This document shows, in pieces, positions 41,043-64,000 of a stretch of DNA of 64,000 bases (the stretch's first letter is position 1; every line of letters starts with the position of its first letter). The position numbers were made by a program, and so were the translations under genes. This DNA comes from an uncultured Erysipelotrichaceae bacterium (GTDB lineage Bacteria > Bacillota_I > Bacilli_A > RFN20 > CAG-826), in contig OMWW01000001.1 of NCBI GenBank assembly GCA_900314865.1, positions 127,457 through 191,456 of the forward strand. The letters are read 5' to 3'. The notes under the pieces are model-generated. The model was not told where the DNA came from, did not search any database, and worked only from the letters and a program-made list of their open reading frames with translations.

Positions 41043-41060
41043 GAAAAGGAGATAAGAAAA

Positions 41061-41495
41061 ATGACAAAGAAATACTTCGCAGTTACAGTTAAGTTCGGAC
41101 ACGTCGGACAACACAAATGCATTATTAAAACAGTTCCAATCGAAGCCGAATCCGGCAAAGACGCAGCCTACCAAGCAAGATGGATGCCAAGAGTTAAACA
41201 TCATGATAAACATGCAATTATCAGCGTTAAAGAAATCGATCTTGAAGCCTATCTTCTTCTAATGATTGATAAGAGTTTCGATCCTTACTTCCAATGCAAA
41301 AACATTCAAGAGCAAAGGAATGTATGCGAAGGAATTGAAGAAGATGTTCAGTACATGGAAACTGATGAAATTGACTACGAATTACGCGAAAAAACTCGCA
41401 AAAATAAAGTTAATTTCAAAAATAAAAAGAATAAGCTCATCAAAAACGACTACCAATACATGATGAGAAATTACGAATTATCAATGAGCTATTAA
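41061..41495 (+). CDS. Hypothetical protein, first gene of the AAA+/helicase operon
   Basis: A 144-residue protein of unknown family. The start is set at the ATG with AAGGAGA about 10 bases upstream. The N-terminal half (YFAVTVKFGHVGQHKCIIKTVPIEA, then SGKDAAYQARWMPRVKHH) looks like a small alpha/beta domain. The C-terminal part is highly charged and Lys/Asn-rich. The stop is 14 bases before the AAA+ gene. Its place suggests a partner of the ATPase or helicase. Confidence 0.75.
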   Translation: MTKKYFAVTVKFGHVGQHKCIIKTVPIEAESGKDAAYQARWMPRVKHHDKHAIISVKEIDLEAYLLLMIDKSFDPYFQCKNIQEQRNVCEGIEEDVQYMETDEIDYELREKTRKNKVNFKNKKNKLIKNDYQYMMRNYELSMSY

Positions 41496-41509
41496 GGAGG
41501 AAAATCACA

Positions 41510-43054: not shown

Positions 43055-43067
43055 GAGGACGATTCAA

Positions 43068-46016: not shown

Positions 46017-46018
46017 AG

Positions 46019-47524: not shown

Positions 47525-47526
47525 TT

Positions 47527-48873
47527 ATGTTAAAAACAAAAACATTTAATTATCGAGATAGAGTATTAGATTTTGGCTTTGTCGAGTTAGAGCCAAAAGC
47601 ATCTAACACCAACGTTGAAGCAATAATCAATAGCGTTAAAGAAAGCCTAATTGTTGTAGATACAAAAGGCCTGCTTATGCTCGATTTCTTAAAACGTGCG
47701 GAAATATTCCTTAATCAAAATGATAAAGTTCTCGTAGGATTAACTAGCGATAAAATCATTGCTGAACTTAAGAAAAACGGAGTTTCTAATGGATTCTTCA
47801 GATCTACAGATGAGCAATTTGAAACCGGTATCGTTATCGTTGATAAGAAAGATGCATTTTTGGCTCTTGATGTTGACCACATTTATAGTGTGCCACCAAG
47901 ATATATTCCAGAAATATTCAATTATGTTAATCATGTGATTTGGTCTAAGGCCAACTATGAACAATGTCAAGGAAGCCTAAAAAAGGTTGATGATGCAAGA
48001 TTAAGCGTTGTTATTCCTTCCTTCTTGAAGGACCTAGATTTTGAAACCAAAACGATAAAGTTGGCAACCGAGTCAGCAAACAAAGATGGAGAATGTCTTA
48101 TCTTAGTTAAAGAAAAAGATGTTCAAAGAAAGGCTAAGGTTGCTCCATTTGAAATAAAAGGTTTAGGTCTAGCTGATGATGTTTTATGTGTCAATGCGTT
48201 TGGGGATAACTACTATCCACTTAGTATTGGAGATAATTCAATTTACACAGCCGAATCTTTTGAAAGCGAGACTGTTGGTTCCTTATTTGGTAAGAACATT
48301 TGGTATAAAGGCAAAATCTACAAAGTCGAAGAAAAAGAAAGCATTAATGGCACAGTGAATGTTCCTCTTGATGAAGTTGATTCCTTTGAACCAGATTTTG
48401 ATAGTAGTGAAAAAACATTCAACGGCATTACATTAAGCCTGACTGTTTCAATTGATGTGAAACCTTTAAAGCTTGATGGAAGCTACGCTTTGTCTAACAA
48501 ATATAAAACAATCCAAAGGGTTGAAAACGAATTAAAAGAAAGCATCGCAAAATTAGAAAAGATGGATCTTGATAAAAAACTTCTTAAACAACTTGAAAGC
48601 ATTAAAACTGAAAGATTGCTATCTGAAAAAGTTAAGATGTTTAATGCTTTTGTTGCCAGCAAAGAGTTTGGAGTTGATGCGTTAAATAATAAAAAATCTC
48701 CTGTTTCCATCATTAATGTTAATGAAGATGAATTAAATGTGCCAAACGAGTTAATTGGCAAGCTTTATACCAAACAAAGTAAGAATTACTTAGCCACTAC
48801 AAAAGAGCGCATTGCTGACGCTAAAAAGTGGTTAAAAGAAAACAAGATGGAAGCCGTCTTGATTGAGGCATAA
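47527..48873 (+). CDS. Unknown protein of the AAA+/helicase operon
   Basis: A 448-residue protein that I cannot place in a family. The N-terminal 150 residues look like an alternating alpha/beta domain (ESLIVVDTKGLLMLDFLKRA, then GIVIVDKKDAFLALDVDHIY and NYVNHVIWSKANYE), somewhat like a phospholipase D-type or receiver-like fold. The C-terminal third contains a helical, probably coiled-coil segment (about residues 325-390). It starts 2 bases after the previous stop with GGAGG upstream, and its last base overlaps the next start. Confidence 0.7.
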   Translation: MLKTKTFNYRDRVLDFGFVELEPKASNTNVEAIINSVKESLIVVDTKGLLMLDFLKRAEIFLNQNDKVLVGLTSDKIIAELKKNGVSNGFFRSTDEQFETGIVIVDKKDAFLALDVDHIYSVPPRYIPEIFNYVNHVIWSKANYEQCQGSLKKVDDARLSVVIPSFLKDLDFETKTIKLATESANKDGECLILVKEKDVQRKAKVAPFEIKGLGLADDVLCVNAFGDNYYPLSIGDNSIYTAESFESETVGSLFGKNIWYKGKIYKVEEKESINGTVNVPLDEVDSFEPDFDSSEKTFNGITLSLTVSIDVKPLKLDGSYALSNKYKTIQRVENELKESIAKLEKMDLDKKLLKQLESIKTERLLSEKVKMFNAFVASKEFGVDALNNKKSPVSIINVNEDELNVPNELIGKLYTKQSKNYLATTKERIADAKKWLKENKMEAVLIEA

Positions 48874-49070
48874 TGGACAAGAAGATTAACGTATTGATTA
48901 AAAAGGACAAAACCCTATACGTAGAGACTGAAGACTTCAAAGGAGAAGCCTGCGTTTCTGCTGTTAAAGAGTTGTTTAAAACTTTCCTTGAAATAGACAA
49001 TTTGGAATTAACTTCTGACTATTATGATGGCGAGGTTGGTATCGATAGTGGTGTGGAGGTCAAGCTATGA
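48873..49070 (+). CDS. DUF2997-like small protein
   Basis: A 65-residue protein with the DUF2997 pattern: a short strand pair (INVLIKKDKTLYVETEDFKG), then EACVSAVKELFKTFLEI with the conserved Cys. The family is short and of unknown function. It is often encoded beside DUF1257 (Ycf35-like) and Ycf46-like genes, as here. Both ends overlap neighbouring genes by 1 and 4 bases, so translation is coupled. Confidence 0.75.
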   Translation: MDKKINVLIKKDKTLYVETEDFKGEACVSAVKELFKTFLEIDNLELTSDYYDGEVGIDSGVEVKL

Positions 49071-49600
49071 GTTCTACAGTCAATATGGATATGGCCTTAA
49101 TATCCGCATCAAATATCATTCCGCAAGATCAATTAAGAAGAGTTTTTGAAGAATGTGTTAAAGAACTTGGTGGAGTTATTCAAAACAACAATTTGTTTTT
49201 AGGCAAAGAGAATTTAGGTAAGTTAACTATTAATAATAGAATTGTCTTATCTTTTTCAAGCGACTATGAAACTTCCAAACGTGCCGAAGTTAGAAAACTC
49301 TTAAGAGACACATTTACCAGAAGAGCGGCTATTGCGCACGAGAATTATCTCTATGAACTTAAAAAAGAAAAAGAAAGACTCGAACAACAAAGTCGAGTTG
49401 AAGCTGAATTATTAAATTCATTAAAGGAAGTAGAAACTAAAATTGAAAAGAGTGAAATTGGCTTTGAAAGACAAAACCAAAGCGAATGTGATGCTCTTAA
49501 AGGCGAAATCATTGATGCCGCTGTGGCTCAAGGCTATGAGGTAGTTGAAGCTGAAACATCACAAGGTATTCAATTACAATTTATTAGAAGAGATTATTAA
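49067..49600 (+). CDS. DUF1257/Ycf35-like protein
   Basis: A 177-residue protein. The clearest resemblance to Ycf35/DUF1257 is the C-terminus, AVAQGYEVVEAETSQGIQLQ, and the N-terminal DQLRRVFEECVKELG. The middle (about residues 95-135) is a charged coiled coil. The identification also leans on the DUF2997 gene before it and the Ycf46-like gene earlier in the operon. The start overlaps the DUF2997 stop (ATGA), and the end overlaps the radical-SAM start. Confidence 0.6.
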   Translation: MSSTVNMDMALISASNIIPQDQLRRVFEECVKELGGVIQNNNLFLGKENLGKLTINNRIVLSFSSDYETSKRAEVRKLLRDTFTRRAAIAHENYLYELKKEKERLEQQSRVEAELLNSLKEVETKIEKSEIGFERQNQSECDALKGEIIDAAVAQGYEVVEAETSQGIQLQFIRRDY

Positions 49601-50148
49601 TGCTAAGAATATATAAAATTGCTCATGATAGCAAAATCTATGGGCCAGGCAACCGCGATGTTGTTTGGTTTAAAGGGTGCTCATTACATTGTAAAAACTG
49701 CATAAATCCAGAACTATGGTCCACCGAAGGTGCAGAGTTGTTTTCTGTTGATGAAGCTGTTAATCAATTAAAATCAAAACATTTAACGCTGTTGGGTGGA
49801 GAGCCGCTTCAACAAGAAGATATCCTTCCGTTTATTAAGGCTGTTAAGCGAAAAAGAATAGGTGTGATACTTTTTACCGGATATGAGCAATCCGAATTAT
49901 TTGGAGATGCAAAACAAGCTGCAGATCTGTGTGATGTTGTTATATACGGCAGGTATATCGACAAGTTGAAAGATGACTCTTTATATTTAAGAGGCTCGCT
50001 TAATCAATCAATTGTGTTTAATACCAAGAAATATAAGCCTAAAGAATTTGAAAAGCCGAATTCATATGAAGTAAATATCACAAATGATCTCGAACTTCAT
50101 GGAAGAACAAAAGAATTAATTAATGATTTATTAGAATTGAACCGCTAG
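49600..50148 (+). CDS. Small radical-SAM (NrdG-like) 4Fe-4S protein
   Basis: A 182-residue protein resembling the activating component of anaerobic ribonucleotide reductase. The cluster motif CxxxCxxC is at Cys27, Cys31 and Cys34 (GCSLHCKNC), preceded by GPGNRDVVWFKG. LLGGEPLQQEDI is the GGE motif that binds SAM, and ILFTGYEQSEL follows. No NrdD-type reductase is in the window, so its target is more likely another operon protein. It is last in the operon and starts by a 1-base overlap. Its final codons and stop are formed by the repeated element at 50137. Confidence 0.88.
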   Translation: MLRIYKIAHDSKIYGPGNRDVVWFKGCSLHCKNCINPELWSTEGAELFSVDEAVNQLKSKHLTLLGGEPLQQEDILPFIKAVKRKRIGVILFTGYEQSELFGDAKQAADLCDVVIYGRYIDKLKDDSLYLRGSLNQSIVFNTKKYKPKEFEKPNSYEVNITNDLELHGRTKELINDLLELNR

Positions 50149-50157
50149 TACATAACA
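50137..50157. repeat. Copy 3 of the TTGAACCGCT(A/G)GTACATAAC element
   Basis: It matches copies 1 and 2 with one change in 21 nt. It covers the last codons and stop of the radical-SAM gene and lies 61 bases before the next start codon. Confidence 0.75.
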
Positions 50158-50218
50158 GGTTCTTTTCTTTTTGTGTGAAACTGTAGACACAAATCAAGGA
50201 GAACCAAAACTAACAATT

Positions 50219-50845
50219 ATGAAAAAGACAACTAAAAGCGCAACAACAATGATGTGGGTTGAGTACTGGGTAGAGCACGTTAATCCATCACAAGATATGT
50301 TTGAAATCTGGGCTGATGAACTCCCAAACGGCAAATGGAAGTGTGAAATCGAACTGCCTTTAATCAATCAAACAGTTAAATCAATATCAACAACTCAAGT
50401 TAATGCAATGAAAAATGCATCTGATAAAGCCGCAAAACTCATTAATGTATACATGAGGGAGCATCCTGAATTAAAAATTAGGAACATGTTTAAAGGTCAA
50501 GAGTGGATCTTCACCGAAGATGAAAATGGAAGGTTTAAATGCGCTGGCCGCAGTCCAAGAATGAGAGCCAGAGAAGGGAAGCAACTTCAATTCATTATGA
50601 CCGAATCTTCTAAAGCGATGGAAAAAGCCATCTTACGAATTAAAAAAGTTAATGGCTCTGTTAAAAATCTATTCGTCCAAGCCATTGATAAATCATTCTT
50701 CAAAGAAAACGATTCGATTGAAGACATGCAAAGAAAGATTAGAAACAAAATGCTTGGCGACAGTAGTGATTGGTATATTTCTTGGATAAGCACTTCAATC
50801 GTCGAAAACTGTGTCGTTGCTGTTGGATACATTTGGGAGGATTAG
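50219..50845 (+). CDS. Hypothetical protein
   Basis: A 208-residue protein of unknown family, starting MKKTTKSATTMMWVEYW. The nearest good ribosome binding site (AAGGAGA near 50196) is 16 or more bases from this ATG, so the start is not certain; a TTG at 50171 is the other option. The N-terminal half is Trp-rich and beta-like (WVEHVNPSQDMFEIWADELP), and the C-terminal half is helical and basic. It is followed 3 bases later by a small acidic gene. Confidence 0.7.
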   Translation: MKKTTKSATTMMWVEYWVEHVNPSQDMFEIWADELPNGKWKCEIELPLINQTVKSISTTQVNAMKNASDKAAKLINVYMREHPELKIRNMFKGQEWIFTEDENGRFKCAGRSPRMRAREGKQLQFIMTESSKAMEKAILRIKKVNGSVKNLFVQAIDKSFFKENDSIEDMQRKIRNKMLGDSSDWYISWISTSIVENCVVAVGYIWED

Positions 50846-51058: not shown

Positions 51059-52795
51059 TTAGACCAAGACAACTTTATAATGTAGGTGCTCATCTCTAAA
51101 CCTTCTTTCTAATGTCACGTCTCCTTCTAAAAGTGGTGTGTGTTCAACTAAACTTGCTCTCTTTTCTTTGATGTAGTGGTAGTTGGCTTTTTCGTTATTT
51201 GGAAGGACAAATACAAGCTCGTGTCTATTAACAACGATAATGGCTTGCAGACATGTGTTAACGATTGGTTTAGTGAGCGTTTCTGCTGTGAGTCTTTGTC
51301 CGCCTATGTTCTTGCTCATATCCAATAGGCGGAGTTTAGATAATTCAGCTTCTCTAGCTTTACATTCTAGTTCGCTAATTTTCATATCTAGTTCACGGTA
51401 ATCGATGATGCGTTCCTTATATTGCTTTTCTAAGACAATCTTTTCGATTTCATCCATCGTGTTTTGTTTCTTTGTAATGACATCACTGATTTCGTCTTCT
51501 AGTGATTCTTTTTGCCTTTTAAGGTCATCAATCTGTTCTTGGATGTTGCCGGCCTCAGTATGTAAGGCGATATTGTTCATTAATTTGGTTAGTGCCTTGC
51601 CTTTATCAAAGTAAACTCTATTGATAACTTCGGTGGTGGCTTTAAGAACAATGTCTTCACTGATTGGCTTTGCTCCGCATTTGTCTTCTGCATAATTGAG
51701 AACATAGCCATTACATTGGAACATAATTCTCGGTGTTGGATATCCTTGTGTCCAATGCCTTCTTTTAAAGGTATCGCCACATTTAAGGCAGACAAGCATA
51801 CCACTTAATGGGTATTGTGATGCATATTTACGTGAATCTGGATTAGCCCCTCTAAACTTTTCTCTATTACGAGCATAAATTAATTGGGCTTTCTCCCAGA
51901 TCTCTCTAGAAACAATAGGTTCATGGTTGTTTTTGATATAAACCTGTTCTTCAATACCCTCGTTTCTTACCCTTTTATGGTTTAGGAAATCGATGGTAAC
52001 ACTTTTTTGAAGTAATAAGTCACCACAATACTTTTCGTTTGTGATAATGCCTTCAATGGTGGAGTTATACCATTTAGTTCCTTTTCTTCTAGTGAGATAG
52101 CCTTTGCTTTGCATGATTCTTCCAATCTCATTAGTGCCGACATCTTGCACATAGAGTTCAAATATCTCTTTAACTATCGCGGCTTCTTCAGGAATTATGA
52201 TTAAGTTCTTTTCGTTATTAGGGTCTCTTCGATATCCAAGAAGATTTGAGCTAACCATAGGCACGCCTTCTTTCTTCTTTTTATTAAAGGTCCATTTAAC
52301 GTTATCTGAAATGTGGCGTGATTCTTCCTGCGCCATAATAGCAGAGATGGTGAATAGCATTTCGCTAGATGGGTCCAATGTAGATATGTGCTCATTATCA
52401 AAGTAGATTTCAACACCTATGGCTTTAAGTTCCCTAGCGATATTAATAGATGTTTGGATGTTACGAGCGAATCTTGATATCGATTTAGTGACAATCTTAT
52501 CTATTTTGCCTGCTTTAGCATCTCTAATCATTCGTTGGAACTCTAGTCTTCCTTCTTCAGAAGTACCAGAAATGCCTTCATCAGCGTAGATATCCACTAA
52601 AATGACATTAGGATCATTGGCTAATCTTTGCCTCCACTCATCGACTTGGTTATCAAAACTGTTAAGTTGTTCGTCTTTGTCACTTGAAACACGACAATAG
52701 GCGGCAACTCTTTTTTGATTTGGAAGAAGCTTTGAACCATCTAATAAGAACTTAGGTTTTGGTGTAGGGGCAATAACTTGTATTTCTCTCTCCAT
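51059..52795 (-). CDS. Large serine recombinase (site-specific integrase)
   Basis: A 578-residue recombinase. The start is set at the ATG with TAGGAGG just upstream. The resolvase domain begins VAAYCRVSSDKDEQ with the catalytic serine at 37 or 38, and KSISRFARN supplies catalytic arginine. A recombinase domain (GVPMVSSNLLGYRRDPN) follows, then a zinc ribbon (MLVCLKCGDTFKRRHW through CNGYVLNYAEDKCGA, about residues 330-375) and a coiled coil (about 405-490). Such enzymes integrate and excise mobile elements at att sites. It marks this region as an integrative element. Confidence 0.95.
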   Translation of the reverse strand: MEREIQVIAPTPKPKFLLDGSKLLPNQKRVAAYCRVSSDKDEQLNSFDNQVDEWRQRLANDPNVILVDIYADEGISGTSEEGRLEFQRMIRDAKAGKIDKIVTKSISRFARNIQTSINIARELKAIGVEIYFDNEHISTLDPSSEMLFTISAIMAQEESRHISDNVKWTFNKKKKEGVPMVSSNLLGYRRDPNNEKNLIIIPEEAAIVKEIFELYVQDVGTNEIGRIMQSKGYLTRRKGTKWYNSTIEGIITNEKYCGDLLLQKSVTIDFLNHKRVRNEGIEEQVYIKNNHEPIVSREIWEKAQLIYARNREKFRGANPDSRKYASQYPLSGMLVCLKCGDTFKRRHWTQGYPTPRIMFQCNGYVLNYAEDKCGAKPISEDIVLKATTEVINRVYFDKGKALTKLMNNIALHTEAGNIQEQIDDLKRQKESLEDEISDVITKKQNTMDEIEKIVLEKQYKERIIDYRELDMKISELECKAREAELSKLRLLDMSKNIGGQRLTAETLTKPIVNTCLQAIIVVNRHELVFVLPNNEKANYHYIKEKRASLVEHTPLLEGDVTLERRFRDEHLHYKVVLV

Positions 52796-52805
52796 AATTA
52801 TCCTC

Positions 52806-52913
52806 CTACACATATACATCACTCTTTAGAGTGATAATAGCAACGAATACATCGACTGTTTCAACGTTATTGATACACACGAGAAACATAGGTTTTTTAT
52901 TATTTTTTAACAT
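52806..52913 (-). CDS. 35-residue ORF coupled to the serine recombinase
   Basis: A 35-codon ORF starting MLKNNKKPMFLVCINNVE. It has GGAGG exactly 10 bases before the ATG, and its stop TAG is part of the recombinase ribosome binding site (TAGGAGG). Placement and spacing strongly suggest coupled translation. The peptide has a basic start and a beta-like hydrophobic middle (FLVCIN, VDVFVAIITL). Its role is unknown; it may be a small control protein for the recombinase. Confidence 0.6.
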   Translation of the reverse strand: MLKNNKKPMFLVCINNVETVDVFVAIITLKSDVYV

Positions 52914-53822: not shown

Positions 53823-56033
53823 ATGCATATTTTCAAATCAAACGTATTAGGTTTGGCTTCAAATACCCGCTATCCTCATGAATTCATAATCGATGACAAA
53901 ACAGGCAAAGAAGAACTAAAAGATATATTCAATAAGGATTATGTCTGCGCTAGGTATAAGGACAATAAACGCTCAGGCGATAACTACATCGTTTCTGATT
54001 GTTTAGCGTTAGATTGCGATAATGACCACAGCGATAATCCCGATAGTTGGATAACTCCTGAAGACGTTATCAGAACATTTGAAGGTGTCTTTATGGTCTT
54101 CCACATGTCTAGAAATCACATGAAGGAGAAGGACGGCAAAGCCGCTAGACCTAAATTCCATGTCTTTATGGCAATGGACGAAATCAAAGAAGAAAGTAAA
54201 TACGCAGAACTCAAACGAAGGGTTAATTATCACTTTCCTTACTTTGATAAAAACGCTGAAGACTCAGCAAGGTTCTTTTTTGGAACCGAACAACCTGAGG
54301 TGATGATATCTCGTGGTAACGAGACCATTAATCACTTCTTAGATTCATATGACGCGTTTGCTAATATGGATGATCACAGCCAGATCATTCCGTGCGGTCA
54401 AAGAAACTCAATGCTCTCTAAATATGCTGCCGCCATCTTGAAAAGATATGGTGACACTGATGAGGCTAGAGAACTCTTTAACGAAAAGAACGATAAGTGT
54501 TGTGAAGAACCGTTAGAAGACGAGGAATTGAATTCCATTTGGAGGAGTGCCTTATCTTTCTATAAAAACAAGATATTAACTAATCCAAATTATGTGCCAC
54601 CAGACAAATATGACGATGGTGAATCCTACGTTCCCACTGATATGTCTGATATCGGCCAAGCCAAAGAGGTGGTCAAACATTATGGCAATATCATCTCTTA
54701 CAACACCGCAATGAAGTTTCTTGTTTATCGAGATAACAGGTGGATTGAAAGCGAAGAACTCGCGCTAGAAATCATCCATCGTTTCACTGATAAGCAAATA
54801 CTCCAAGCCATGAAACTCTTTAGAGAAGCAGTTAAAACCGGTGATAAAACCAAAATTGATAATGCTAAAGGCTATCTAAAGTTTGCCACCAGTAGAAGAA
54901 ACTCTAACTACATAACTGCAACTCTAAAACAAATGACTCCATACATTGATAGAGATACAGATTGTTTTGATAGAGATCCATTCTTATTATCAACTCCTGA
55001 TGGTGTCTATGATTTAAGAAAAGGACCAATTAACCCAAAGCCACATGATCCTGAGGATTATATGACCAAAATGACTACATGCTCTCCTTCTTATGAGGGA
55101 AGAAAGCTATGGGAAGACACTTTGGATAAGATATTCTCAGGTGATAAAGACCTCATCAAATATGTCCAACAATGCTGTGGATTAGCCGCAATTGGTGGGG
55201 TTTATGTCGAGATGATGATCATTGCTCATGGCGATGGTGGCAACGGCAAATCAACATTCTGGAATACAATCTTAAAAGTTTTCGGTGATTATGGCGGCAC
55301 GCTTAGTAGCGATAATCTATTCATCAATAGTGGTAAATCATCGAGATTTGCTAAAGCCTTCCTAAAAGGAAAGAGACTAATTGTTTCTAGTGAATCTGAA
55401 TTAGGAGCAAGGCTTAATGATGGTATGGTTAAGCAGCTATGCTCCACGGATAGAATTAAAGGTGAAAAGAAGTTCAAAGATGAATTTGATTTTGTCCCAT
55501 CTCACACATTAGTTCTATACACGAATCACTTGCCAAAAGTATCTGCTGGAGATGATGGGTTATGGCGAAGAGTGGTTATTATTCCATTTAACAATAAGTT
55601 CACTGGTAAAAACGACACTAAGAACTTCTCGGATGTTCTATTCGAGCAGTGTAGAGAATATATCCTCTATTGGGTCATGGAAGGCGCGAAAATTGTCTAT
55701 GACAATAAATTCCACATCGATGAGCCAAAAGTCGTCTCAGAAGCCAAAAAACAATATAAAAACGACAATGACTGGCTTCAACAGTTCATCAGTGAATGTT
55801 GTAAGAGAGAACCAACCGCTAAAGTAGGTGCTGGAGAGCTTTATGAAAAGTATCGAACCTACGCATGGAAGAGAAATGAATATGCTCGACCAAGTACTGA
55901 CTTTAAGAAAGCAATGGAAGCTGCTGGATTCATAAGCACTCATCCGCACAACAAAACTTACTATCATGGCATTAGATTACTCACTAGTGCAGAGAACGAC
56001 TTTGCTGTTCCTGAGGATGACTTTCTAAATTAA
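53823..56033 (+). CDS. PrimPol/D5-type primase-helicase of a mobile element
   Basis: A 736-residue replication protein. The N-terminal part resembles an archaeo-eukaryotic primase/polymerase: catalytic-type ALDCDND (about residues 60-66) followed by a basic RPKFHVFMAMDE segment. The C-terminal half is the phage/plasmid primase P4 family helicase. It has Walker A HGDGGNGKSTF (about 468), VSSESELGARLNDGMVKQL, and LVLYTNHLPKVSAGDDGLWRRV. A C-terminal D5-type winged helix (about 640-720) is likely. GGAGG lies 8 to 13 bases before the ATG. It would start element replication, probably at repeats upstream. Confidence 0.92.
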   Translation: MHIFKSNVLGLASNTRYPHEFIIDDKTGKEELKDIFNKDYVCARYKDNKRSGDNYIVSDCLALDCDNDHSDNPDSWITPEDVIRTFEGVFMVFHMSRNHMKEKDGKAARPKFHVFMAMDEIKEESKYAELKRRVNYHFPYFDKNAEDSARFFFGTEQPEVMISRGNETINHFLDSYDAFANMDDHSQIIPCGQRNSMLSKYAAAILKRYGDTDEARELFNEKNDKCCEEPLEDEELNSIWRSALSFYKNKILTNPNYVPPDKYDDGESYVPTDMSDIGQAKEVVKHYGNIISYNTAMKFLVYRDNRWIESEELALEIIHRFTDKQILQAMKLFREAVKTGDKTKIDNAKGYLKFATSRRNSNYITATLKQMTPYIDRDTDCFDRDPFLLSTPDGVYDLRKGPINPKPHDPEDYMTKMTTCSPSYEGRKLWEDTLDKIFSGDKDLIKYVQQCCGLAAIGGVYVEMMIIAHGDGGNGKSTFWNTILKVFGDYGGTLSSDNLFINSGKSSRFAKAFLKGKRLIVSSESELGARLNDGMVKQLCSTDRIKGEKKFKDEFDFVPSHTLVLYTNHLPKVSAGDDGLWRRVVIIPFNNKFTGKNDTKNFSDVLFEQCREYILYWVMEGAKIVYDNKFHIDEPKVVSEAKKQYKNDNDWLQQFISECCKREPTAKVGAGELYEKYRTYAWKRNEYARPSTDFKKAMEAAGFISTHPHNKTYYHGIRLLTSAENDFAVPEDDFLN

Positions 56034-56448: not shown

Positions 56449-56676
56449 ATGGAAAAGGCAACCAAACATAAGAACTTTAAGAGAATAGCTGAGGCGAGAA
56501 CTGAGAAGGTATTAGATATGCTTGATTTGATAGGCAATCTTTCTAATACCTCTTTTTATGAATATGACGAAAAAGAAGTTAAAGCTATTTTTGATGCTAT
56601 TCAAAAATCGGTTGATGAAAACAAGAAGAAGTTTAGTAAAAAGAATAAAAAAACAACAAGGAGGTTTACGCTCTAA
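56449..56676 (+). CDS. Small conserved-type protein at the head of the GHKL operon
   Basis: A 75-residue basic protein: MEKATKHKNFKRIAEARTEK, VLDMLDLIGNLSNTSFYEYD, an amphipathic helix (EKEVKAIFDAIQKSVDENKK) and a Lys-rich end. I recall similar short proteins in Firmicutes mobile elements, but no function. No ribosome binding site is seen and the -10-like sequence is near, so the message may be leaderless. It overlaps the next start by one base. Confidence 0.7.
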   Translation: MEKATKHKNFKRIAEARTEKVLDMLDLIGNLSNTSFYEYDEKEVKAIFDAIQKSVDENKKKFSKKNKKTTRRFTL

Positions 56677-58676
56677 TGGACAGAATTTGGAACTTTCCTG
56701 CAGCCAATCATGGAACCAGTTTTGGTTATTCCGGAGATGGTTCAGATCAATTTAGTAATTATCCTTTAAACAATTTAGCGCGTGAAATTATTCAAAACTC
56801 ACTAGACGCTAGAAAGGGAGATGCGCCAGTAGTTGTTGAATTTCATCAATTTATTGGACCGGCCGATGAATTTCCTGGTTTGGATTCATTTGTTGACTAT
56901 CTAATGAGATTGAGAAATCAAAAACTTAGATCGAAAAATGCAGATCCGAAAGAAGTAAAATTTGTCGAAAACTTAATGGCATCAATTGCTGCGGCTAACA
57001 GAACAAACAAAATCAGATGGCTAAGAATATCAGACTTTAATACAACTGGTCTTTGGGGTTCTTCCACACCAGCAAACAAAGATACTGCATGGTTTGCATT
57101 CATTAATGGTGCTGGTAAAAACCAAAAAGGAGAAAAATCTGGCGGTTCAAGAGGACAAGGCAAAAGCGCGATTTTTGTTAATTCATCCATTAAAACGATG
57201 TTCGTGTCTACATTTGCATACAACGAAGACGCTGACGCAGAGGAAAAAGCGAACACAGGTGTTTCAAAACTGTTGTCTTTGCTTTTAGACGAAGAAGATC
57301 CGTATAATCCAGACTACACTCAAGGTGTTGGCTATTGTGTTGAAGATAATGCCACGGCAAAAAAATATAACTCTCCAACAGCTGGTTTGTTAGAAATAGA
57401 CCCTGAATTTTCAAGAGAAGAAATGGGTTATGGGACAGATATTTATCTTCCGTTCTTTAGCGGCGAAGATTACTGGGATGATACTGTTGAAGTTGAAACC
57501 ATTATTTCCTTTTTGCCAGCAATTATTAATGGCGATTTAAGAGTAGTTATTTCCTATGATAATACAACCGTTAAACATGAAATTAATTCAGCAAATATAA
57601 CTCCTTACTTATCTGGCAAAGGATGGGGCAAAAAAGAAGGAAAAGCAATTTATAACGTTTTAACTTCTACTAACACAAAGAAAATCCCATATACAGAAAA
57701 ACCTGGTTTTGAAATGACCCTATGGTTGTTGCAAGACAATATGGACGGTATTAATAATGTCTATGAGTATAGACTTCCAACTATGATGAAAATTAGGAAG
57801 GAAGCTAAAGATTCGACTGTCGGATATACAGGAGTTTTATTTGTAGAGGGCGAAGAAATCTGCAAAAGATTAAGAAGTGTTGAAGATGCAACACATTCCA
57901 ATTGGTACATAGGCAAATACAAAGAAAGCGGATACGAGAAGAAACAAATTGAAGAAGCTTTGAATATCCTCGATAACTTTATTAGTACTGAATGTCAAAG
58001 ATTTGGTACTACTGGTACTGAAGAATCAATTTATTTCGACATTAAAGGCTGGGATACCGAAGAGGAATCTCTAGATATGTCTGTTGAAGAAAAGAAAGAA
58101 ATTGGTCTTCCGACAGATGATATTGTTTTTGACATGAAAAACGATGATGTTAAGAATCCAAGAAGAAAACGCCTCAAAAAGAAGGGCAATGTAATTGATG
58201 ATAACGGCTCTGCTGAAGCTAATGTTATGGATATCGGTACAACTGGAGAGGGAGAAGAAGAATATAGCCATCCAGATGGGCACAACAAAGGCACTGGAGG
58301 CGAAATCCACGAAGGCGACAGAGTTGATAATTACGACCCAGATAAAGGTGAAACATTAGTTATTGCAAGAAGAAGAATAGCAACCGTTAACGCAAGAATG
58401 CCGTCTATTTGTCCTGAAGACGGTTTGTTTGATTTGGTATTTAAACCAGAAAAAACCGGAACAGATGCTCATGTAGAAATCTTAAAAGCTGGTGTCGATG
58501 GAGAAAACGAAACCACAAAAATCATTTCTGCAATAATGGACGACAAAGTGCTCAAAATTGAGAAGAATAAAATTATTTTAGACAAAATCGTTAAAAACAC
58601 TGAATATAGAATTCATCTCAAACTAGATGAAACTTCAAATTATATTTGGGAGGTAAATATCGATGCCGAAGATTAA
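56676..58676 (+). CDS. GHKL-type ATPase (MORC/MutL-like), defence candidate
   Basis: A 666-residue protein. The N-terminal ATPase has the N-box NLAREIIQNSLDAR with Glu37, Asn41 and Asp44, the G1 region WLRISDFNTTGL (about 110-121) and the G2 lid GGSRGQGKSAIF (about 150-161). These fit GHKL ATPases (gyrase B, Hsp90, MutL, MORC). The middle (about 200-440) may be a transducer domain, and an acidic linker (about 490-560) leads to a beta-rich end (about 560-666). MORC-like ATPases occur in bacterial restriction-like operons; here a Dam methylase and a helicase are in the same operon. The stop overlaps the next gene by 14 bases. Confidence 0.85.
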   Translation: MDRIWNFPAANHGTSFGYSGDGSDQFSNYPLNNLAREIIQNSLDARKGDAPVVVEFHQFIGPADEFPGLDSFVDYLMRLRNQKLRSKNADPKEVKFVENLMASIAAANRTNKIRWLRISDFNTTGLWGSSTPANKDTAWFAFINGAGKNQKGEKSGGSRGQGKSAIFVNSSIKTMFVSTFAYNEDADAEEKANTGVSKLLSLLLDEEDPYNPDYTQGVGYCVEDNATAKKYNSPTAGLLEIDPEFSREEMGYGTDIYLPFFSGEDYWDDTVEVETIISFLPAIINGDLRVVISYDNTTVKHEINSANITPYLSGKGWGKKEGKAIYNVLTSTNTKKIPYTEKPGFEMTLWLLQDNMDGINNVYEYRLPTMMKIRKEAKDSTVGYTGVLFVEGEEICKRLRSVEDATHSNWYIGKYKESGYEKKQIEEALNILDNFISTECQRFGTTGTEESIYFDIKGWDTEEESLDMSVEEKKEIGLPTDDIVFDMKNDDVKNPRRKRLKKKGNVIDDNGSAEANVMDIGTTGEGEEEYSHPDGHNKGTGGEIHEGDRVDNYDPDKGETLVIARRRIATVNARMPSICPEDGLFDLVFKPEKTGTDAHVEILKAGVDGENETTKIISAIMDDKVLKIEKNKIILDKIVKNTEYRIHLKLDETSNYIWEVNIDAED

Positions 58677-59553
58677 AAGATTTAAAACGTATCCATTTCC
58701 GTTTTTAGCTGAGTATACAAAAGATTATAAGAAAACTAAATTCATTTTAAATCTTCACTATACAAGCGAAAGAGGTACAGTTAAATTTCAAGCTGACTAT
58801 TCAATTAATAATGATGAACTAATTGAATCGATTAAAGACGGAACAATTGAAGTTGCTGTAAAAATCGTTTGCAGGCGAATGGGTTTTAGTAAGACATATG
58901 AGATATCTAAAGACCATAACTCCATTGAGGTCGCCTATGATTCAATGCAATTTGAAGGCGATGTAGAAGTTAAAGCGTTCCTTGTTGCTAAATACGATTT
59001 TACTTTAGAAAACTCAGATTTGTCAGATTCGTGGATTAACGAAAGACCAACTGTTCAAGCTGATAATGTTATTGGTGAATCCAACGAGAGAGTTGTAACT
59101 ATCACCCACATAAAATCAGGCAGCAGTAAATCCATCTTTAAATTTACATATGACTTGAAGAAAGACGACGATGCTCCATATAGTGTTGATTTAACAGAAA
59201 GTGATTGCATTGTTTTTAAGCTTTCAAGAAAAACATATAGACAATTCGAAGCCATTCGCCATAAAGGAAGAGAATTTATTTATACTCTGTATGTTATTCC
59301 AACAATTGCAGATATTTTACGCCAAATGATTAATGAAAAAGTTCCTGAAGGTGAAGAAGTGGAACCAAATGAGTTTAATATAAAACACGCTAATAAACGT
59401 TGGTATATTGTTTTATCTGAAAATTATGAAAGGGCTTTTAATGGAGCAGATCCAACTGAAGGCACTAAACATCCTTTAGAGGCCGCTCAAACAATTATTG
59501 ATAGATATGCAGTCGGGAATATGCTTACAACCGCAAAGAGGGCAAAGTTATAA
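58663..59553 (+). CDS. Unknown protein of the GHKL-methylase operon
   Basis: A 296-residue protein, predicted beta-rich in its first 130 residues (FILNLHYTSERGTVKFQADY, then IEVAVKIVCRRMGF and VEVKAFLVAKYDF), with a helical end (TIADILRQMINEKVPEGEEV). No family is recognised. The start overlaps the GHKL gene and has GGAGGT 9 or more bases upstream. It is likely to form a complex with the GHKL protein, whose C-terminus is also beta-rich. Confidence 0.75.
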   Translation: MPKIKRFKTYPFPFLAEYTKDYKKTKFILNLHYTSERGTVKFQADYSINNDELIESIKDGTIEVAVKIVCRRMGFSKTYEISKDHNSIEVAYDSMQFEGDVEVKAFLVAKYDFTLENSDLSDSWINERPTVQADNVIGESNERVVTITHIKSGSSKSIFKFTYDLKKDDDAPYSVDLTESDCIVFKLSRKTYRQFEAIRHKGREFIYTLYVIPTIADILRQMINEKVPEGEEVEPNEFNIKHANKRWYIVLSENYERAFNGADPTEGTKHPLEAAQTIIDRYAVGNMLTTAKRAKL

Positions 59554-59554
59554 T

Positions 59555-60295
59555 ATGAAAAATTTACGTTATTTTACCGATGATGCCATAACAATGTTTA
59601 AGGCAAATAAAGAGGATTTTTGTGCAAAAATGCGCGAATTCCCAAATAGCACAGATTGGTTGAAATCGTTTTATGGCGATGAACCAACCGTTCCTTCAAA
59701 ATATAGTTTTGATTTTGAATTCAAGCCTTTTGATAAAAAATCATCAACTAGAGACTTTGATAATGCAGTCGCACTTTACGAATTATTTGAAGAAAACAAT
59801 ATTGGCCCAGCAACAATCTACAATGAAAAATTTTTAACTGGATTTATTTTCACATTTGGCTATGAATATTTTATGAATGTTATGGGGGCAGACCAGGTTA
59901 CTCACGTTTTTGCAACTTTGTTCTTTGATGACGGCACCCATCGTGCTGTTGCTAGAAATGTTGTTGGACAGTTGTATAGATATGTTGAAATGACAGTCGA
60001 CGATACATTGGTGGATAGATATGAAATAACGAGATACGTATTTCAAAACCCCGCATTATTTAGAATCAAATACAACACCTCGGTTGATGGAGAAAATACA
60101 ACCAGAGCCATTTTTAAGGCATTTAGAGAATGGACTGAAGAAACGCATAAATCTCCAACAACACCTATGGTAGAGAAGCTTAAAGTACATTTATCTGTTT
60201 TAGCTAACATTAGCGAGACTGATTTAATGGACGAAAGAGCTTTAATTAATTATTTGAAAGAATTTATTAAGAAAGTGGATCATAAATTGGCGTAA
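59555..60295 (+). CDS. Unknown protein of the GHKL-methylase operon (possibly DUF6339-like)
   Basis: A 246-residue protein. The start is set at the ATG one base after the previous stop, giving MKNLRYFTDDAITMFKANKE; an earlier in-frame start would overlap the previous gene. The opening (RYFTDDAI...) and overall length recall DUF6339, found in defence neighbourhoods, but the match is from memory and weak. A mixed region (FDNAVALYELFEENNIGPAT) is followed by helices. The last base of its stop is the first base of the methylase ATG. Confidence 0.7.
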   Translation: MKNLRYFTDDAITMFKANKEDFCAKMREFPNSTDWLKSFYGDEPTVPSKYSFDFEFKPFDKKSSTRDFDNAVALYELFEENNIGPATIYNEKFLTGFIFTFGYEYFMNVMGADQVTHVFATLFFDDGTHRAVARNVVGQLYRYVEMTVDDTLVDRYEITRYVFQNPALFRIKYNTSVDGENTTRAIFKAFREWTEETHKSPTTPMVEKLKVHLSVLANISETDLMDERALINYLKEFIKKVDHKLA

Positions 60296-61596
60296 TGAAA
60301 CCTTTTGTTAAGTGGGCTGGTGGAAAAAAACAAATTCTCCCGTTGATATTAGAAAAGATTAATGGGTGTATTTCGTCTACCAATAAAAAGGATTATGTGT
60401 TTATCGAACCTTTCGTTGGTGGTGGAGTCGTTTTTATTACACTTAAAAATAGCAGAACAATTATTAATGATTTAAACAAAGAACTAATTACTGCATATCG
60501 CGTTATAAGAAACAACCCACAAGAATTAATGAAAAGGCTTGATGTGATGTTTTATGAATTTTCCCTAAGAGGCGAAGAATATTACAAAATAATTAGAAGT
60601 GAAGACAAAGAAGAAGGCTATCCTTCATTCGACGATTTACACATAGCTTCAAGAATGATTTTTTTGAATAAAACTTGTTTTAATGGTTTGTATAGGGTTA
60701 ATTCAGAAGGATATTTTAATACTCCGATGGGAAGAAATAAAACCAAAAGTTTTTATGATAAAAAGAATATTGAACAACTATCTAGATTTCTAAAATCAAT
60801 TCCAGAAGAAAACATAATGAATGGCTCTTATAAACTAGCAATGAGAAGAGCCGGTATTGGTGACATCGTTTATGTGGATCCTCCGTATGACTACACAGAA
60901 AACGATGGGTTTACTAAATATCAAAAAGAAGGATTTACGTTAGAAGATTTAATTGAATTAAAGGAAGAATGCGATAAAGCTTTAGATTCTGAAGCGTTTG
61001 TAATCATTTCCAATAATGACACAAAAGCAGTAAGAGAAGCCTTTAAAAATGACTCTAAACACAATTATTCTTTCTATTATATAGAAAAGCTTGATACAAA
61101 AAGATTAATTAACTGCAAAGGCAACCTTCGTAATACTGGGAAAGAAATATTAATCGTTGGTGTTCCTTGTTCTTTTCCGCAAGTCAAAGATGTTACTAAA
61201 TTACTTGAATATGTTCGTATAAAAAATGAAAAAGATCTCAAAAACGAAGAATATCTTTTAAATCGATTTGGAGTTACGAAACTACGTGTTACTCAAATAT
61301 TATCCACTCTTCAGTATTTTGATGTAATCGACAATAACTTTGGATTCACAAGCAAAGGTAAAGAACTTAGAAAATGCTCTAAAAAAACACTTAATAGAGA
61401 AATGAAAAACGTGATCTTAGAAAAGCCTATCTTTAAAGAAGTTTATGACAATGATTCAAAAGACACATCTAACAAAATGGACAACTCTCAAATAACTGAG
61501 ATTATTAAAAGAAACAGCACTAATATTAAAGATGGGATTGCTATTAAAAGAGCAAAGTTTGTGAGAGAAATAGTGGATTGGTGTTTGGCAAATTAA
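60295..61596 (+). CDS. Dam-class DNA adenine methyltransferase with C-terminal extension
   Basis: A 433-residue N6-adenine methyltransferase of the D12/alpha class. Motifs are FVKWAGGKKQILP (residues 4-16), IEPFVGGGVVF (SAM binding, about 41-51), NDLNKEL and the catalytic DPPYDYTE (about 197-204). Typical Dam/M.DpnII enzymes are 270-285 residues. Here residues 295-433 add a winged-helix-like part (LNRFGVTKLRVTQILSTLQY), perhaps for target recognition. The related Dam and DpnII enzymes recognise GATC, but the target here cannot be told. Its place in a GHKL/helicase operon suggests self-DNA marking. Confidence 0.92.
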   Translation: MKPFVKWAGGKKQILPLILEKINGCISSTNKKDYVFIEPFVGGGVVFITLKNSRTIINDLNKELITAYRVIRNNPQELMKRLDVMFYEFSLRGEEYYKIIRSEDKEEGYPSFDDLHIASRMIFLNKTCFNGLYRVNSEGYFNTPMGRNKTKSFYDKKNIEQLSRFLKSIPEENIMNGSYKLAMRRAGIGDIVYVDPPYDYTENDGFTKYQKEGFTLEDLIELKEECDKALDSEAFVIISNNDTKAVREAFKNDSKHNYSFYYIEKLDTKRLINCKGNLRNTGKEILIVGVPCSFPQVKDVTKLLEYVRIKNEKDLKNEEYLLNRFGVTKLRVTQILSTLQYFDVIDNNFGFTSKGKELRKCSKKTLNREMKNVILEKPIFKEVYDNDSKDTSNKMDNSQITEIIKRNSTNIKDGIAIKRAKFVREIVDWCLAN

Positions 61597-61597
61597 T

Positions 61598-64000
61598 ATG
61601 GAAAAAGCAAAAGAACTGATTAACCAAATATACCTTGACGTCAAGAAGCGCTACCCAGAATTCGAGTATAGGAAATACGATACTTCTGACACAGTTTATT
61701 TTGGGCAGACTTCTAGACAATTTCCTGGCAAGAACGGGAATGGGTTTAAGTTCTATAAAGAATATAATCGATACAAAGTCGGCGTTAAAAGCAATTTAAA
61801 AACCGGTAAGCTTGACGATCACGTGTTTCTTTTGCCTGAACAATTTGAACAAGCTAGAGCGTGTATTTTCGCCCTATATGAAATACCTTTAACAACAACA
61901 TCTACAATACAAAGTTCAATAAAAGAATTTGAAAGAGCATTAATTGATAACGGAATAAGGTTGGAACCAAAACCAAGTGCAAAAGGCACAACAACAAGGT
62001 TTTTATCAGAGTATGATTCTAGTTTTGCTCCTGTCATTGTTTCTTCTGATGAAATGGGCAATAAACCAATTATTAGAATTAAAAAATACGCTCCACTCAG
62101 TTCAGACAAAAACAAAGAAGAAAATGGATATTTTGAATATGATTTATTTAAAAGCAAGAACTCTAGATTCATAAATCCTATTGAAAAGATTCATATTTTG
62201 TTAATGACAGTTGAGTTATATAACAACGTTTCGAAATCTCCTGTTTTGAATGTCATAAAAGACATTGCTCTTGGTTATAACCTAAAAGTGATTGATTTAT
62301 ATGGTGAGAATTTCGAATTCAAAATCATCTTATCTAAAGGCTTTGAGTTAGTTGCTCTTAAATCTAAAGGCAAAATGATTATTAGAGCAAAGAACAGAAT
62401 AACTGGTGAAATAAGCGATTTTGATTTTAGTGAAGATGGTGCTTTTGAGGCTTTTGGGTTTTTATTTAAATATCAACCAAAAGTCGCACCGATTAAAACA
62501 AAAGAATTCAAAATCTCTTTAAAAAACAAACACATTAAGTTAAAGACAGAAGAAAGCTCATATCTGGAGTGCGATTCCAATGGAGAAATAATATGGCTAT
62601 CTAGTGATGATTCGATCGTTGAAATCAATAACGGAGTTTTACATGCTCTCAAATCAGGAACCGCAACAATAACCGCAAAAAACGGAACTGCTTTTGACAC
62701 ATGCGTGGTTGATGTTGAAGAAGCTGTTGTCTTGCCTCCGCTTTCTGCTAAAGCTCAATATTTTGTTGAGCAAGTAGCCGAAATAAAATCCGAATCCACA
62801 GCAGACGATTTTGAATTACTATTTGAACAATATGATGAATTAGAAGACGACGATTGCAACGACAGTAGAGTTGCTGAAGCATATGAATTGTTAAAAGCAC
62901 TAAGCAGTGAAGAAGATGCTGTTCCTCAATCTGTTAGATTTGTTTATGCTTCAAAATCATTTTTGAAGGAAGTCGAAAGTCTTGAATCGGAATATTTAGA
63001 ATATCTTGAAGGCATTAAAAAATCTTTTAACACATTAAAAAGTAATGAACTTGCTAATTATTTAATTTCAAAAAGGTTGGTTTACATTGACGGATATTTA
63101 AAGATAAGAGTAAAAAACGGAGATAAACACAGGATTATTTTCTGCTTTGGGAATAAGCTCGGAAAGAACCCAAAAGATATCTATGTTTTTGATTACAATA
63201 GAACACACGATTTTTCTAATATAAGAAATCTTCATCCAGAAGAACAACAATATTCTCTTTGGGCGTTAGATAAACCAAAAATAGTAGTCCCTCCTCTTAC
63301 CAAGAAGCAGGAAGCAATTTCACTTTCTGTTGATAAACCTTTGATTTGTACTGGATGTGCTGGTAGCGGAAAAACCCTTATAAGTGTCTATATGTACATC
63401 CATCTTTTAGACAAAGATTTCAATGGCATAGAAAATGTCAGACACGACCAGCTTGTTTATGTTACTTATAACGAAAACGCTAGAGATAATGCTGCAAACC
63501 AGATTAAAGAAATTGTCGATTCTGCGAACTGCAAAACCATTTTCGAATTCTTTTACGATATAGCTAAACCTGATTTAGAAGGCTTAACTTATGCCGATGA
63601 GAACAATTTTGTCTCGTGGTGGAAAAGCGAAATCACAAACCACTTGTTAAAAATAAAAATGAACAGTCTTTCCAAATCAAACCCAATTAAGTATGTTTAT
63701 ACATTCTTCAGAGGTTTATATAAGGGAAGTATGTTTAGGTGGGAGCTTACTCATGATGATAAGTGTTTAACGAGAGAGCAAATGATTAATCTTTTAAACA
63801 AAGAGCCAATTGAAGAAGAACGTGTGAATCTTATTTATGATATCTGTGAGCTATATCAACAGTATTTAGACAACAATAAGATGTATGATGATAACGATTT
63901 GGCTCGATTTGCAGCAAAGAGATTAAGCAAGGGCATAGCTAAAAAGTTCAACCATATAATTATTGATGAAGTACAAGATTTAACAGAAGTCCAGCTAGAT
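61598..64000 (+). CDS. UvrD-like SF1 helicase with embedded Ig-like (Big_2) domain, partial
   Basis: The frame is open from the ATG, one base after the methylase stop, to the window edge (801 codons), so the C-terminus is missing. The N-terminal 290 residues are unknown. Residues about 300-375 look like a Big_2 Ig-like domain: IIWLSSDDSIVEINNGVLHA, then LKSGTATITAKNGTAFDTCV. After about 200 helical residues comes a UvrD/Rep ATPase with Walker A CTGCAGSGKTL (about 584) and Walker B IIIDEVQDLTE (about 788). Helicases of this class drive DNA unwinding in repair and restriction. An Ig-like fold, normally extracellular, in a cytoplasmic helicase is very unusual. Confidence 0.85.
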   Translation, partial: MEKAKELINQIYLDVKKRYPEFEYRKYDTSDTVYFGQTSRQFPGKNGNGFKFYKEYNRYKVGVKSNLKTGKLDDHVFLLPEQFEQARACIFALYEIPLTTTSTIQSSIKEFERALIDNGIRLEPKPSAKGTTTRFLSEYDSSFAPVIVSSDEMGNKPIIRIKKYAPLSSDKNKEENGYFEYDLFKSKNSRFINPIEKIHILLMTVELYNNVSKSPVLNVIKDIALGYNLKVIDLYGENFEFKIILSKGFELVALKSKGKMIIRAKNRITGEISDFDFSEDGAFEAFGFLFKYQPKVAPIKTKEFKISLKNKHIKLKTEESSYLECDSNGEIIWLSSDDSIVEINNGVLHALKSGTATITAKNGTAFDTCVVDVEEAVVLPPLSAKAQYFVEQVAEIKSESTADDFELLFEQYDELEDDDCNDSRVAEAYELLKALSSEEDAVPQSVRFVYASKSFLKEVESLESEYLEYLEGIKKSFNTLKSNELANYLISKRLVYIDGYLKIRVKNGDKHRIIFCFGNKLGKNPKDIYVFDYNRTHDFSNIRNLHPEEQQYSLWALDKPKIVVPPLTKKQEAISLSVDKPLICTGCAGSGKTLISVYMYIHLLDKDFNGIENVRHDQLVYVTYNENARDNAANQIKEIVDSANCKTIFEFFYDIAKPDLEGLTYADENNFVSWWKSEITNHLLKIKMNSLSKSNPIKYVYTFFRGLYKGSMFRWELTHDDKCLTREQMINLLNKEPIEEERVNLIYDICELYQQYLDNNKMYDDNDLARFAAKRLSKGIAKKFNHIIIDEVQDLTEVQLD

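What the first reader, a model, noticed from the sequence alone, without database searches (positions are those of the whole stretch)
56449..64000. GHKL ATPase - unknown - unknown - Dam methylase - Ig-containing helicase operon
Six genes overlap or abut by single bases. A MORC/MutL-like ATPase with an adenine methylase and a UvrD-like helicase suggests a methylation-linked DNA defence system, but no nuclease domain is obvious. The nuclease may hide in the two unknown proteins, the GHKL C-terminus, or genes past the window end. I do not recognise this composition as a named system.
Basis: partly seen in the sequence, partly recalled or inferred. Interest (0 to 1): 0.85.

Follow-up and report, generated by a model that had tools for sequence, protein, structure and literature searches.

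The report
Methylase-linked MORC-type ATPase defence operon
In this bacterium a known but untested anti-phage cassette (a MORC/MutL-like ATPase with two partner proteins) is joined to a GATC-type DNA methylase and, unusually, to a helicase pair, with no DNA-cutting enzyme in sight, so 'restriction without a nuclease' becomes directly testable.

Summary
The operon is real: seven co-directional genes from 56449 to 65556 (the helicase runs past the window). The core, small protein S + GHKL ATPase A + B + C, matches PADLOC candidate PDC-M33 (A 7e-102, B 2e-32, C 3e-19), and A has the diagnostic ExxxH motif of paraMORC2 ATPases, predicted in 2008 to work with restriction-modification genes. A-B-C recurs in about 110 loci. 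DNA methylases are 11-fold enriched beside it (55/368 near genes against 3/194 far; 45/87 loci). The fifth gene, M, is a DpnM-like (GATC-type) methylase fused to a winged-helix-like domain. The closest relative, L209, holds S-A-B-C-M alone. The Ig-domain UvrD-type helicase and the coiled-coil gene after it (H-CC) form a separate module that met the cassette at least twice. Models of B and C and residue conservation in A, B and C show no nuclease. Best reading: a restriction-modification-like defence operon in which M marks host DNA and the paraMORC complex, here helped by H-CC, acts on unmarked DNA. Whether it cuts is open. New variant of a known, apparently untested kind.

The parts
56449..56676 (+). 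S: small basic protein, 75 aa, first gene of the cassette
   Evidence: Homologues of about 70-100 aa upstream of A in roughly half of the loci; 66% identical to its counterpart in L209. No accepted Pfam or PADLOC match.
56676..58676 (+). A: GHKL ATPase of the paraMORC2 / PDC-M33A family, 666 aa
   Evidence: PDC-M33A 7.4e-102; E37..QN..D44, D120..T.G125, G157..G.GK163, R366...M370, E403...H407 conserved in 81 sequences.
58663..59553 (+). B: PDC-M33B, 296 aa; predicted Ig/Fn3-like beta sandwich plus C-terminal helices
   Evidence: PDC-M33B 1.7e-32; AlphaFold2 pLDDT 86.7; best structural matches are Fn3/Ig-like sandwiches, Z about 8.
59555..60295 (+). C: PDC-M33C / DUF6339 (PF19866), 246 aa; predicted almost all-helical
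   Evidence: DUF6339 4.7e-12; PDC-M33C 2.5e-19; AlphaFold2 pLDDT 93.3; no convincing PDB or viral structure match.
60295..61596 (+). M: DpnM/Dam-type N6-adenine DNA methylase (residues 1-288) fused to a DUF7226 winged-helix-like domain (about 348-431), 433 aa
   Evidence: MethyltransfD12 1.9e-48, DUF7226 5.7e-6 (just under Pfam's cut-off); best PDB sequence match DpnM (2dpm) 9.5e-49, with the NGL.R.N...FN.P.GR segment shared with DpnM and Dam; only D12 methylase found in the genome.
61598..64000 (+). H: UvrD-type SF1 helicase with an internal Ig-like domain; continues past the window to 65140 (1180 aa in all), followed by the coiled-coil gene CC at 65143-65556
   Evidence: UvrD-helicase 2.5e-19, motifs GCAGSGKT and DEVQ; residues about 299-398 match Big_2-like stretches of other proteins. 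Full gene L002:6055-9597, CC L002:9600-10013.

Best explanation
A restriction-modification-like anti-phage operon, probably carried by a mobile element, built from two modules. Module 1 (S-A-B-C-M): M methylates adenine, most likely at GATC, in host DNA, and its fused winged-helix-like domain may help find sites; the paraMORC2 ATPase A, with sandwich protein B, helical protein C and small protein S, forms an ATP-driven DNA-engaging complex that acts on DNA lacking the mark. Module 2 (H-CC): a UvrD-type helicase with an Ig-like domain and its coiled-coil partner, recruited to unwind or strip the engaged DNA. Shown here: gene content, families, recurrence of A-B-C, association with methylases, the five-gene unit in relatives, H-CC as a separate recurring module. 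Inferred: defence function, GATC target, ATP-driven DNA engagement, complex formation, the role of H-CC. Unknown: whether the DNA is cut (by an unrecognised or unlinked nuclease) or blocked without cutting.
For: A, B, C hit the defence-candidate models PDC-M33A/B/C. A carries the GHKL motifs, has the paraMORC2 ExxxH motif in 81 of 81 sequences and the MORC-proper S5 motif in none (definitions from PMC2292703). Methylases: 55 of 368 genes within three genes of the cassette against 3 of 194 six or more genes away, odds ratio 11, p = 5e-8, 45 of 87 loci; a survey of 98 neighbours found 14 C5, 10 D12 and several N6/N4 methylases plus MutH, Vsr, HNH, FokI, GmrSD and PD-(D/E)XK nucleases. S-A-B-C-M with a methylase of the same length class (433-453 aa) occurs in the window and in L050, L051, L052, L053, L073, L209, L210, L212; in L209 it stands alone. 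A of the window groups with these D12-methylase loci (support 96, long branch). H-CC sits beside A-B-C again in L146, in the other order and in another part of the A tree, and H-like helicases followed by a short, mostly coiled-coil-looking ORF occur without the cassette in L174, L175, L177, L178. A serine recombinase (51059-52822) and a D5-type primase (53823-56033) lie directly upstream. No full MutL was found in the window genome, so A does not look like mismatch repair.
Against: No experiment. No nuclease was identified, which a classical R-M system would need. The GHKL assignment of A is by motif; profile comparison with MutL was weak (probability 5.8%) and Pfam HATPase_c_3 reached only 0.025 in 2 of 20 members. 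The target of M is inferred from DpnM similarity. GATC is under-represented in genus relatives in which the A search found no match too, so it gives no support. The H-CC link rests on two loci.
Confidence: 0.7

Rival explanations
1. Nuclease-free restriction: the paraMORC complex clamps, loops or compacts unmethylated foreign DNA and blocks its replication or transcription without cutting, in the manner of BREX-like exclusion or of eukaryotic MORC DNA compaction (both comparisons from general knowledge).
For: The closest relative L209 is a bare S-A-B-C-M operon flanked by genes on the other strand. No nuclease fold in the B and C models, no invariant acidic cluster in A's C-terminus, B or C. 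B in both the window and L209 lacks the near-invariant E and R of the family.
Against: Many relatives carry nucleases next to the cassette, suggesting cleavage there; a novel nuclease site cannot be excluded; an unlinked nuclease may serve.
Confidence: 0.3
2. Conventional cleavage with a hidden or separate nuclease: A-B-C is an ATP-driven communication engine as Iyer et al. proposed, and a novel active site in A, B, C or H, or a nuclease elsewhere in the genome, makes the cut.
For: Z1-type relatives L063-L066 have related A (hhalign 99.2%) and C (93.4%) genes with a Z1 helicase and, in L063 where it was tested, a DUF4420 PD-(D/E)XK nuclease. R-M nucleases are frequent neighbours. CglI/NgoAVII need NTP hydrolysis by a separate ATPase subunit (PMC4267653).
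Against: No such gene in the window operon or in the bare L209 operon; models and conservation show no site in A, B or C.
Confidence: 0.4
3. Two unrelated neighbours: S-A-B-C-M is one defence unit and H-CC an independent helicase pair that merely landed downstream in a defence island.
For: H-CC-like pairs occur without the cassette, and S-A-B-C-M occurs without H-CC in eight loci.
Against: One-base spacing M/H and two-base spacing H/CC; independent H-CC next to A-B-C in L146.
Confidence: 0.25
4. An epigenetic or maintenance function of the mobile element (methylation-guided regulation or stability) rather than phage defence.
For: M is the only Dam-type methylase found in the genome and the operon sits next to a recombinase and primase.
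Against: The family's consistent company is restriction genes and it is catalogued as a defence candidate.
Confidence: 0.05

Closest known systems
PDC-M33 (phage defence candidate, PADLOC-DB 2.0.0)
   Same: A, B and C match M33A, M33B and M33C over nearly full length, in consecutive genes.
   Different: PDC-M33 is a catalogue entry for which no paper was found; S, M, H and CC matched no PDC-M33 model.
paraMORC2 GHKL ATPases (Iyer, Abhiman and Aravind 2008, PMC2292703)
   Same: GHKL motifs, invariant ExxxH after the ATPase region, Gram-positive range, neighbourhoods with DNA methylases, Vsr and other nucleases.
   Different: The paper's helicases are superfamily II; here the helicase is a superfamily I UvrD type with an Ig-like domain. 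The Dam-DUF7226 fusion and the bare five-gene form are not described in the text read (figures are not held).
MZA (MutL, Z1, DUF, AIPR) and Z1-MORC-DUF4420 operons
   Same: Use of a GHKL ATPase; in L063-L066 the A and C genes are related to ours by profile.
   Different: No Z1 helicase, AIPR or DUF4420 match in the window operon; A matched no Mza model.
CglI / NgoAVII / BceSIV NTP-dependent R-M systems
   Same: Methylase plus an ATPase that must hydrolyse NTP (PMC4267653).
   Different: Their ATPase is an SF2 helicase with a Z1 domain and their nuclease is a PLD enzyme; neither is present here.
Gabija (GajB)
   Same: H scores against GajB UvrD-type helicases (best 5.7e-15).
   Different: No GajA match; the GajB match is limited to helicase regions.

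Membership tests
PDC-M33 | Adjacent genes matching M33A, M33B and M33C models | tested here: met
   7.4e-102, 1.7e-32, 2.5e-19, consecutive genes
PDC-M33 | PADLOC system rule (required genes, spacing) | not testable with these tools
   Only the HMM library is available, not the rule files
paraMORC2 | N-terminal GHKL ATP-binding motifs | tested here: met
   N-box, D..T.G, G..G.GK conserved in 81 sequences
paraMORC2 | Strongly conserved ExxxH in the C-terminal part of the S5 domain | tested here: met
   E403...H407 in 81 of 81; that this lies in an S5 domain was not modelled
paraMORC2 | S5 fold following the GHKL domain | not tested
MORC proper | GhXhhpXXRhl motif in S5 domain | tested here: not met
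   0 of 81 sequences match the pattern
MutL | Match to TIGR00585 / MutL profile | tested here: not met
   No match in the window genome; hhalign probability 5.8%
Type II restriction-modification system | DNA methyltransferase | tested here: met
   M, TIGR00571 7e-65, above cut-off
Type II restriction-modification system | Linked restriction endonuclease | tested here: inconclusive
   None found by Pfam, PADLOC or models of B and C; a novel or unlinked one is not excluded
MZA | Z1 helicase and AIPR protein with the GHKL ATPase | tested here: not met
   No Z1 or AIPR match in the operon
Gabija | GajA OLD-family nuclease with GajB helicase | tested here: not met
   Only GajB-like helicase hits; no GajA hit
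BREX / DISARM / Druantia | BrxC-PglX-PglZ, or DrmA-DrmB, or DruE core genes | tested here: not met
   No PADLOC match to these cores for S, A, B, C, M and H; for CC only weak coiled-coil hits to many families were seen

The most novel reading that the evidence does not exclude
S-A-B-C-M is a complete nuclease-free, methylation-guided defence system in which a bacterial MORC-type ATPase complex silences unmethylated foreign DNA by clamping or compacting it, a prokaryotic counterpart of eukaryotic MORC silencing, with H-CC as a helicase add-on.
Probability: 0.2. Interest if true: 0.85.

Novelty: new variant of a known kind. Interest (0 to 1): 0.5.

Why it matters
Prokaryotic MORC-type ATPases were predicted in 2008 to drive restriction systems, yet no paper found in the library searched here tests the paraMORC2 branch. 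A minimal five-gene form with a GATC-type methylase and no recognisable nuclease allows a clean test of whether these ATPases restrict DNA by cutting or by holding it, which bears on how eukaryotic MORC proteins arose.

Tried and rejected
Hidden nuclease in B or C: profile searches of PDB sequences gave nothing for B and only chance-looking hits for C; structure searches gave Ig/Fn3-like sandwiches for B and no convincing match for C. Nuclease in X, the big protein beside many cassettes: only sigma-70 region 4 and RNAP alpha-CTD-like domains were found. GATC avoidance as a trace of restriction: 163 against 292 expected around the window, but 189 against 421 in six genus relatives in which the A search found no match, so it is a genus trait. 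Housekeeping Dam: set aside, since M is the only D12 methylase found in the genome and is embedded in the operon. Locating the mobile element's ends by empty sites in relatives: Fic/EF-G on the right is conserved, but the flank order varies and no clean empty site was found. A scan of genome contigs with the single window A found nothing; an alignment was needed. A 302-aa gene near L209, L214 and L174 was considered as a missing exonuclease (guessed from its N-terminus only); it is in 7 of 57 family genomes, not in the window genome, and has no Pfam match. Literature: no paper on DUF6339 or PDC-M33 in the library.

Full report
What is there. Six ORFs lie head to tail on the plus strand from 56449; successive neighbours overlap by 1 base (S/A) and 14 bases (A/B), are 1 base apart (B/C), overlap by 1 base (C/M) and are 1 base apart (M/H). 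The window is G000:C2:127457-191456; reading on shows that the sixth gene, H, ends at window-equivalent 65140 (1180 aa), and that a seventh gene, a 137-aa coiled coil (CC), starts two bases later and ends at 65556; a gap of about 550 bases then precedes the next ORF. Names used below: S (75 aa), A (GHKL ATPase), B, C, M (methylase), H (helicase), CC.

What the proteins are. A, B and C match the PADLOC-DB phage-defence-candidate models PDC-M33A (7.4e-102), PDC-M33B (1.7e-32) and PDC-M33C (2.5e-19). C is also Pfam DUF6339 (4.7e-12). M is a D12-class N6-adenine methylase (1.9e-48) with a DUF7226 C-terminal domain (5.7e-6, just under Pfam's cut-off); its nearest solved relative is DpnM, then E. 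coli Dam, both GATC enzymes, and the segment NGLYRVN...YFNTPMGR lines up with theirs. That M methylates GATC is therefore likely but not shown. H has a UvrD-type SF1 helicase core from about residue 568 on (2.5e-19) and a sub-threshold Ig-like stretch near residues 299-398, which also matches stretches of other proteins in related genomes. Nothing was recognised in H residues 1-290.

A is a GHKL ATPase of the paraMORC2 kind. Pfam does not recognise it well (HATPase_c_3 at 0.025 in 2 of 20 relatives), and a profile comparison with MutL aligned only the N-box. But in 81 non-redundant relatives the N-box (E37..QN..D44), D120..T.G125 and G157..G.GK163 are essentially invariant, as are R366...M370 and E403...H407. 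Iyer et al. [quoted passage not shown] All 81 have ExxxH in that region; none has the motif that defines MORC proper. Geobacillus thermodenitrificans, one of the species in that paper's alignment, carries the cassette.

Recurrence. A class-wide scan found A in 30 of 395 genomes; a named-genome scan gave 187 places, of which 80 were kept; plasmids and a few viral contigs add more. In 117 loci, A-B-C stand in that order nearly everywhere, with S found upstream in roughly half of them. A of Z1-helicase operons (L063-L066; in L063 tested Z1 and a DUF4420 PD-(D/E)XK protein) is related by profile (99.2%), C is too (93.4%), and B doubtfully (43.9%). So the ATPase with its B and C partners looks like an engine that is combined with separate nucleases, methylases and helicases.

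Restriction link. Among genes of 150 aa or more within three genes of the cassette, 55 of 368 are DNA methylases, against 3 of 194 at six or more genes away (odds ratio 11, p = 5e-8); 45 of 87 non-redundant loci have one. The loci were filtered for near-copies of A, but not corrected for deeper relatedness, and the methylase models were built from neighbours of the cassette, which favours the near group somewhat. An independent Pfam survey of 98 neighbours agrees: 14 C5 and 10 D12 methylases, and nucleases of MutH, Vsr, HNH, FokI, GmrSD and PD-(D/E)XK type; AlwI-type enzymes are annotated on two plasmids. A further large protein, X (sigma-70-region-4-like helix-turn-helix), stands beside the cassette in 29 of 91 loci.

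The window's own sub-type. S-A-B-C-M with a methylase of the same length class (433-453 aa) is found in L050, L051, L052, L053, L073, L210 and L212, most with an X gene upstream, and in L209, the nearest relative (66, 38, 33, 34 and 48% identity for S, A, B, C, M). In L209 the genes on both sides are on the other strand, and no X, H or CC was found: five genes appear to be enough. In L048 and L099 a cassette sits near a Dam-type methylase plus a protein matching a type II restriction enzyme model, in L048 of the DUF6996-DUF6997-DUF7226 kind; the window's M carries the DUF7226 type of domain but not the rest. A direct BLAST of the two C-termini is not significant, so this link rests on the Pfam model. 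The tree puts the window's A with these D12-methylase loci (support 96, but on a long branch).

H and CC. H-like helicases followed by a short ORF, mostly coiled-coil-looking by eye, occur without the cassette in L174, L175, L177 and L178. One independent locus, L146, has H and a 211-aa partner directly upstream of A-B-C, in a different part of the A tree. H-CC thus looks like a separate module that has met the cassette at least twice. This favours cooperation but is thin evidence.

Is there a nuclease? B was modelled at pLDDT 86.7: residues about 14-150 resemble Ig/Fn3-like sandwiches (Z about 8, which the tool warns may be a common arrangement), followed by helices. C was modelled at 93.3 and is almost all helical, without a convincing match. 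Conservation shows no acidic cluster: B keeps P13, S157, P213 and W247, and the near-invariant E and R of the family are missing in both the window and L209; C keeps N70, D149, D223 and, in most relatives, a W; A's C-terminal 200 residues keep only D455, G458, G521 and a few others at about 85%. This lowers, but does not exclude, a hidden nuclease. H residues 1-560 could not be modelled.

How it most likely works. Shown: the parts, their families, their recurrence and company. From established knowledge: GHKL-S5 ATPases use ATP to rearrange complexes on DNA, and Iyer et al. proposed DNA looping between recognition and cleavage sites. Inferred: M marks host GATC sites; the A-B-C(-S) complex engages unmarked DNA, perhaps placed by the winged-helix-like domain of M; H-CC unwinds or clears the engaged DNA. 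Whether cleavage follows is the open point.

Novelty. The core is catalogued and its ATPase family was predicted in 2008 to act in R-M systems; no experimental study of it was found in the library, which lacks most subscription journals. New here are the five-gene form with a Dam-winged-helix fusion and no visible nuclease, the H-CC add-on, and the quantified methylase link. Rated as a new variant of a known kind.

Noticed in passing
window 41016-50845: A further tight same-strand gene run: 159 aa, AAA+ ATPase (514 aa), SF1 helicase (982 aa, AAA_11/AAA_12), two unknown proteins (501 and 448 aa), 177 aa, a small radical-SAM/4Fe-4S activase-like protein (182 aa) and 224 aa. It may be another defence or nucleic-acid-related operon next door.
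   Followed up: partly
window 51059-52822 (-) and 53823-56033 (+): Large serine recombinase and D5-type primase/helicase directly upstream of the operon, suggesting an integrated mobile element; its ends were not found.
   Followed up: partly
L053:10558-13077, L045:5910-8720 and 27 others: A large uncharacterised protein family X (mostly about 470-1190 aa) with a sigma-70-region-4-like helix-turn-helix recurs beside the A-B-C cassette in 29 of 91 loci, before S, between S and A, or after C.
   Followed up: partly
L174:8474-12807, L175:6620-12357, L177:295-3628, L178:162-3298: UvrD-type helicases related to H are each followed by a short ORF that looks mostly coiled-coil, without the paraMORC cassette: a two-gene helicase module of its own.
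   Followed up: partly
L048:6656-7951, window 60295-61596: Pfam's DUF7226 matches both the C-terminus of a type II restriction enzyme (DUF6996-DUF6997-DUF7226) and the C-terminus of the window's methylase, as if a nuclease part had been lost and the DNA-binding part kept on the methylase; direct BLAST between the two is not significant.
   Followed up: partly
genome G000 and its genus: No full MutL in the window genome or in nine genus relatives searched (weak partial GHKL hits only), so this genus may lack MutL-dependent mismatch repair.
   Followed up: no
window plus 11.5 kb, and L179-L184: GATC is depleted to about half of expectation in this region and in genus relatives where A was not found.
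   Followed up: partly
L052:8473-10428 (G217, 0.67 Mb contig): A is interrupted by one TGA; either a broken gene or a TGA-as-tryptophan organism.
   Followed up: no
L002:11231-12422 (window-equivalent 66774-67965): A DUF4417 protein followed by a protein with a weak PBECR1 (phage-type nuclease-like) match, just downstream of the operon.
   Followed up: no
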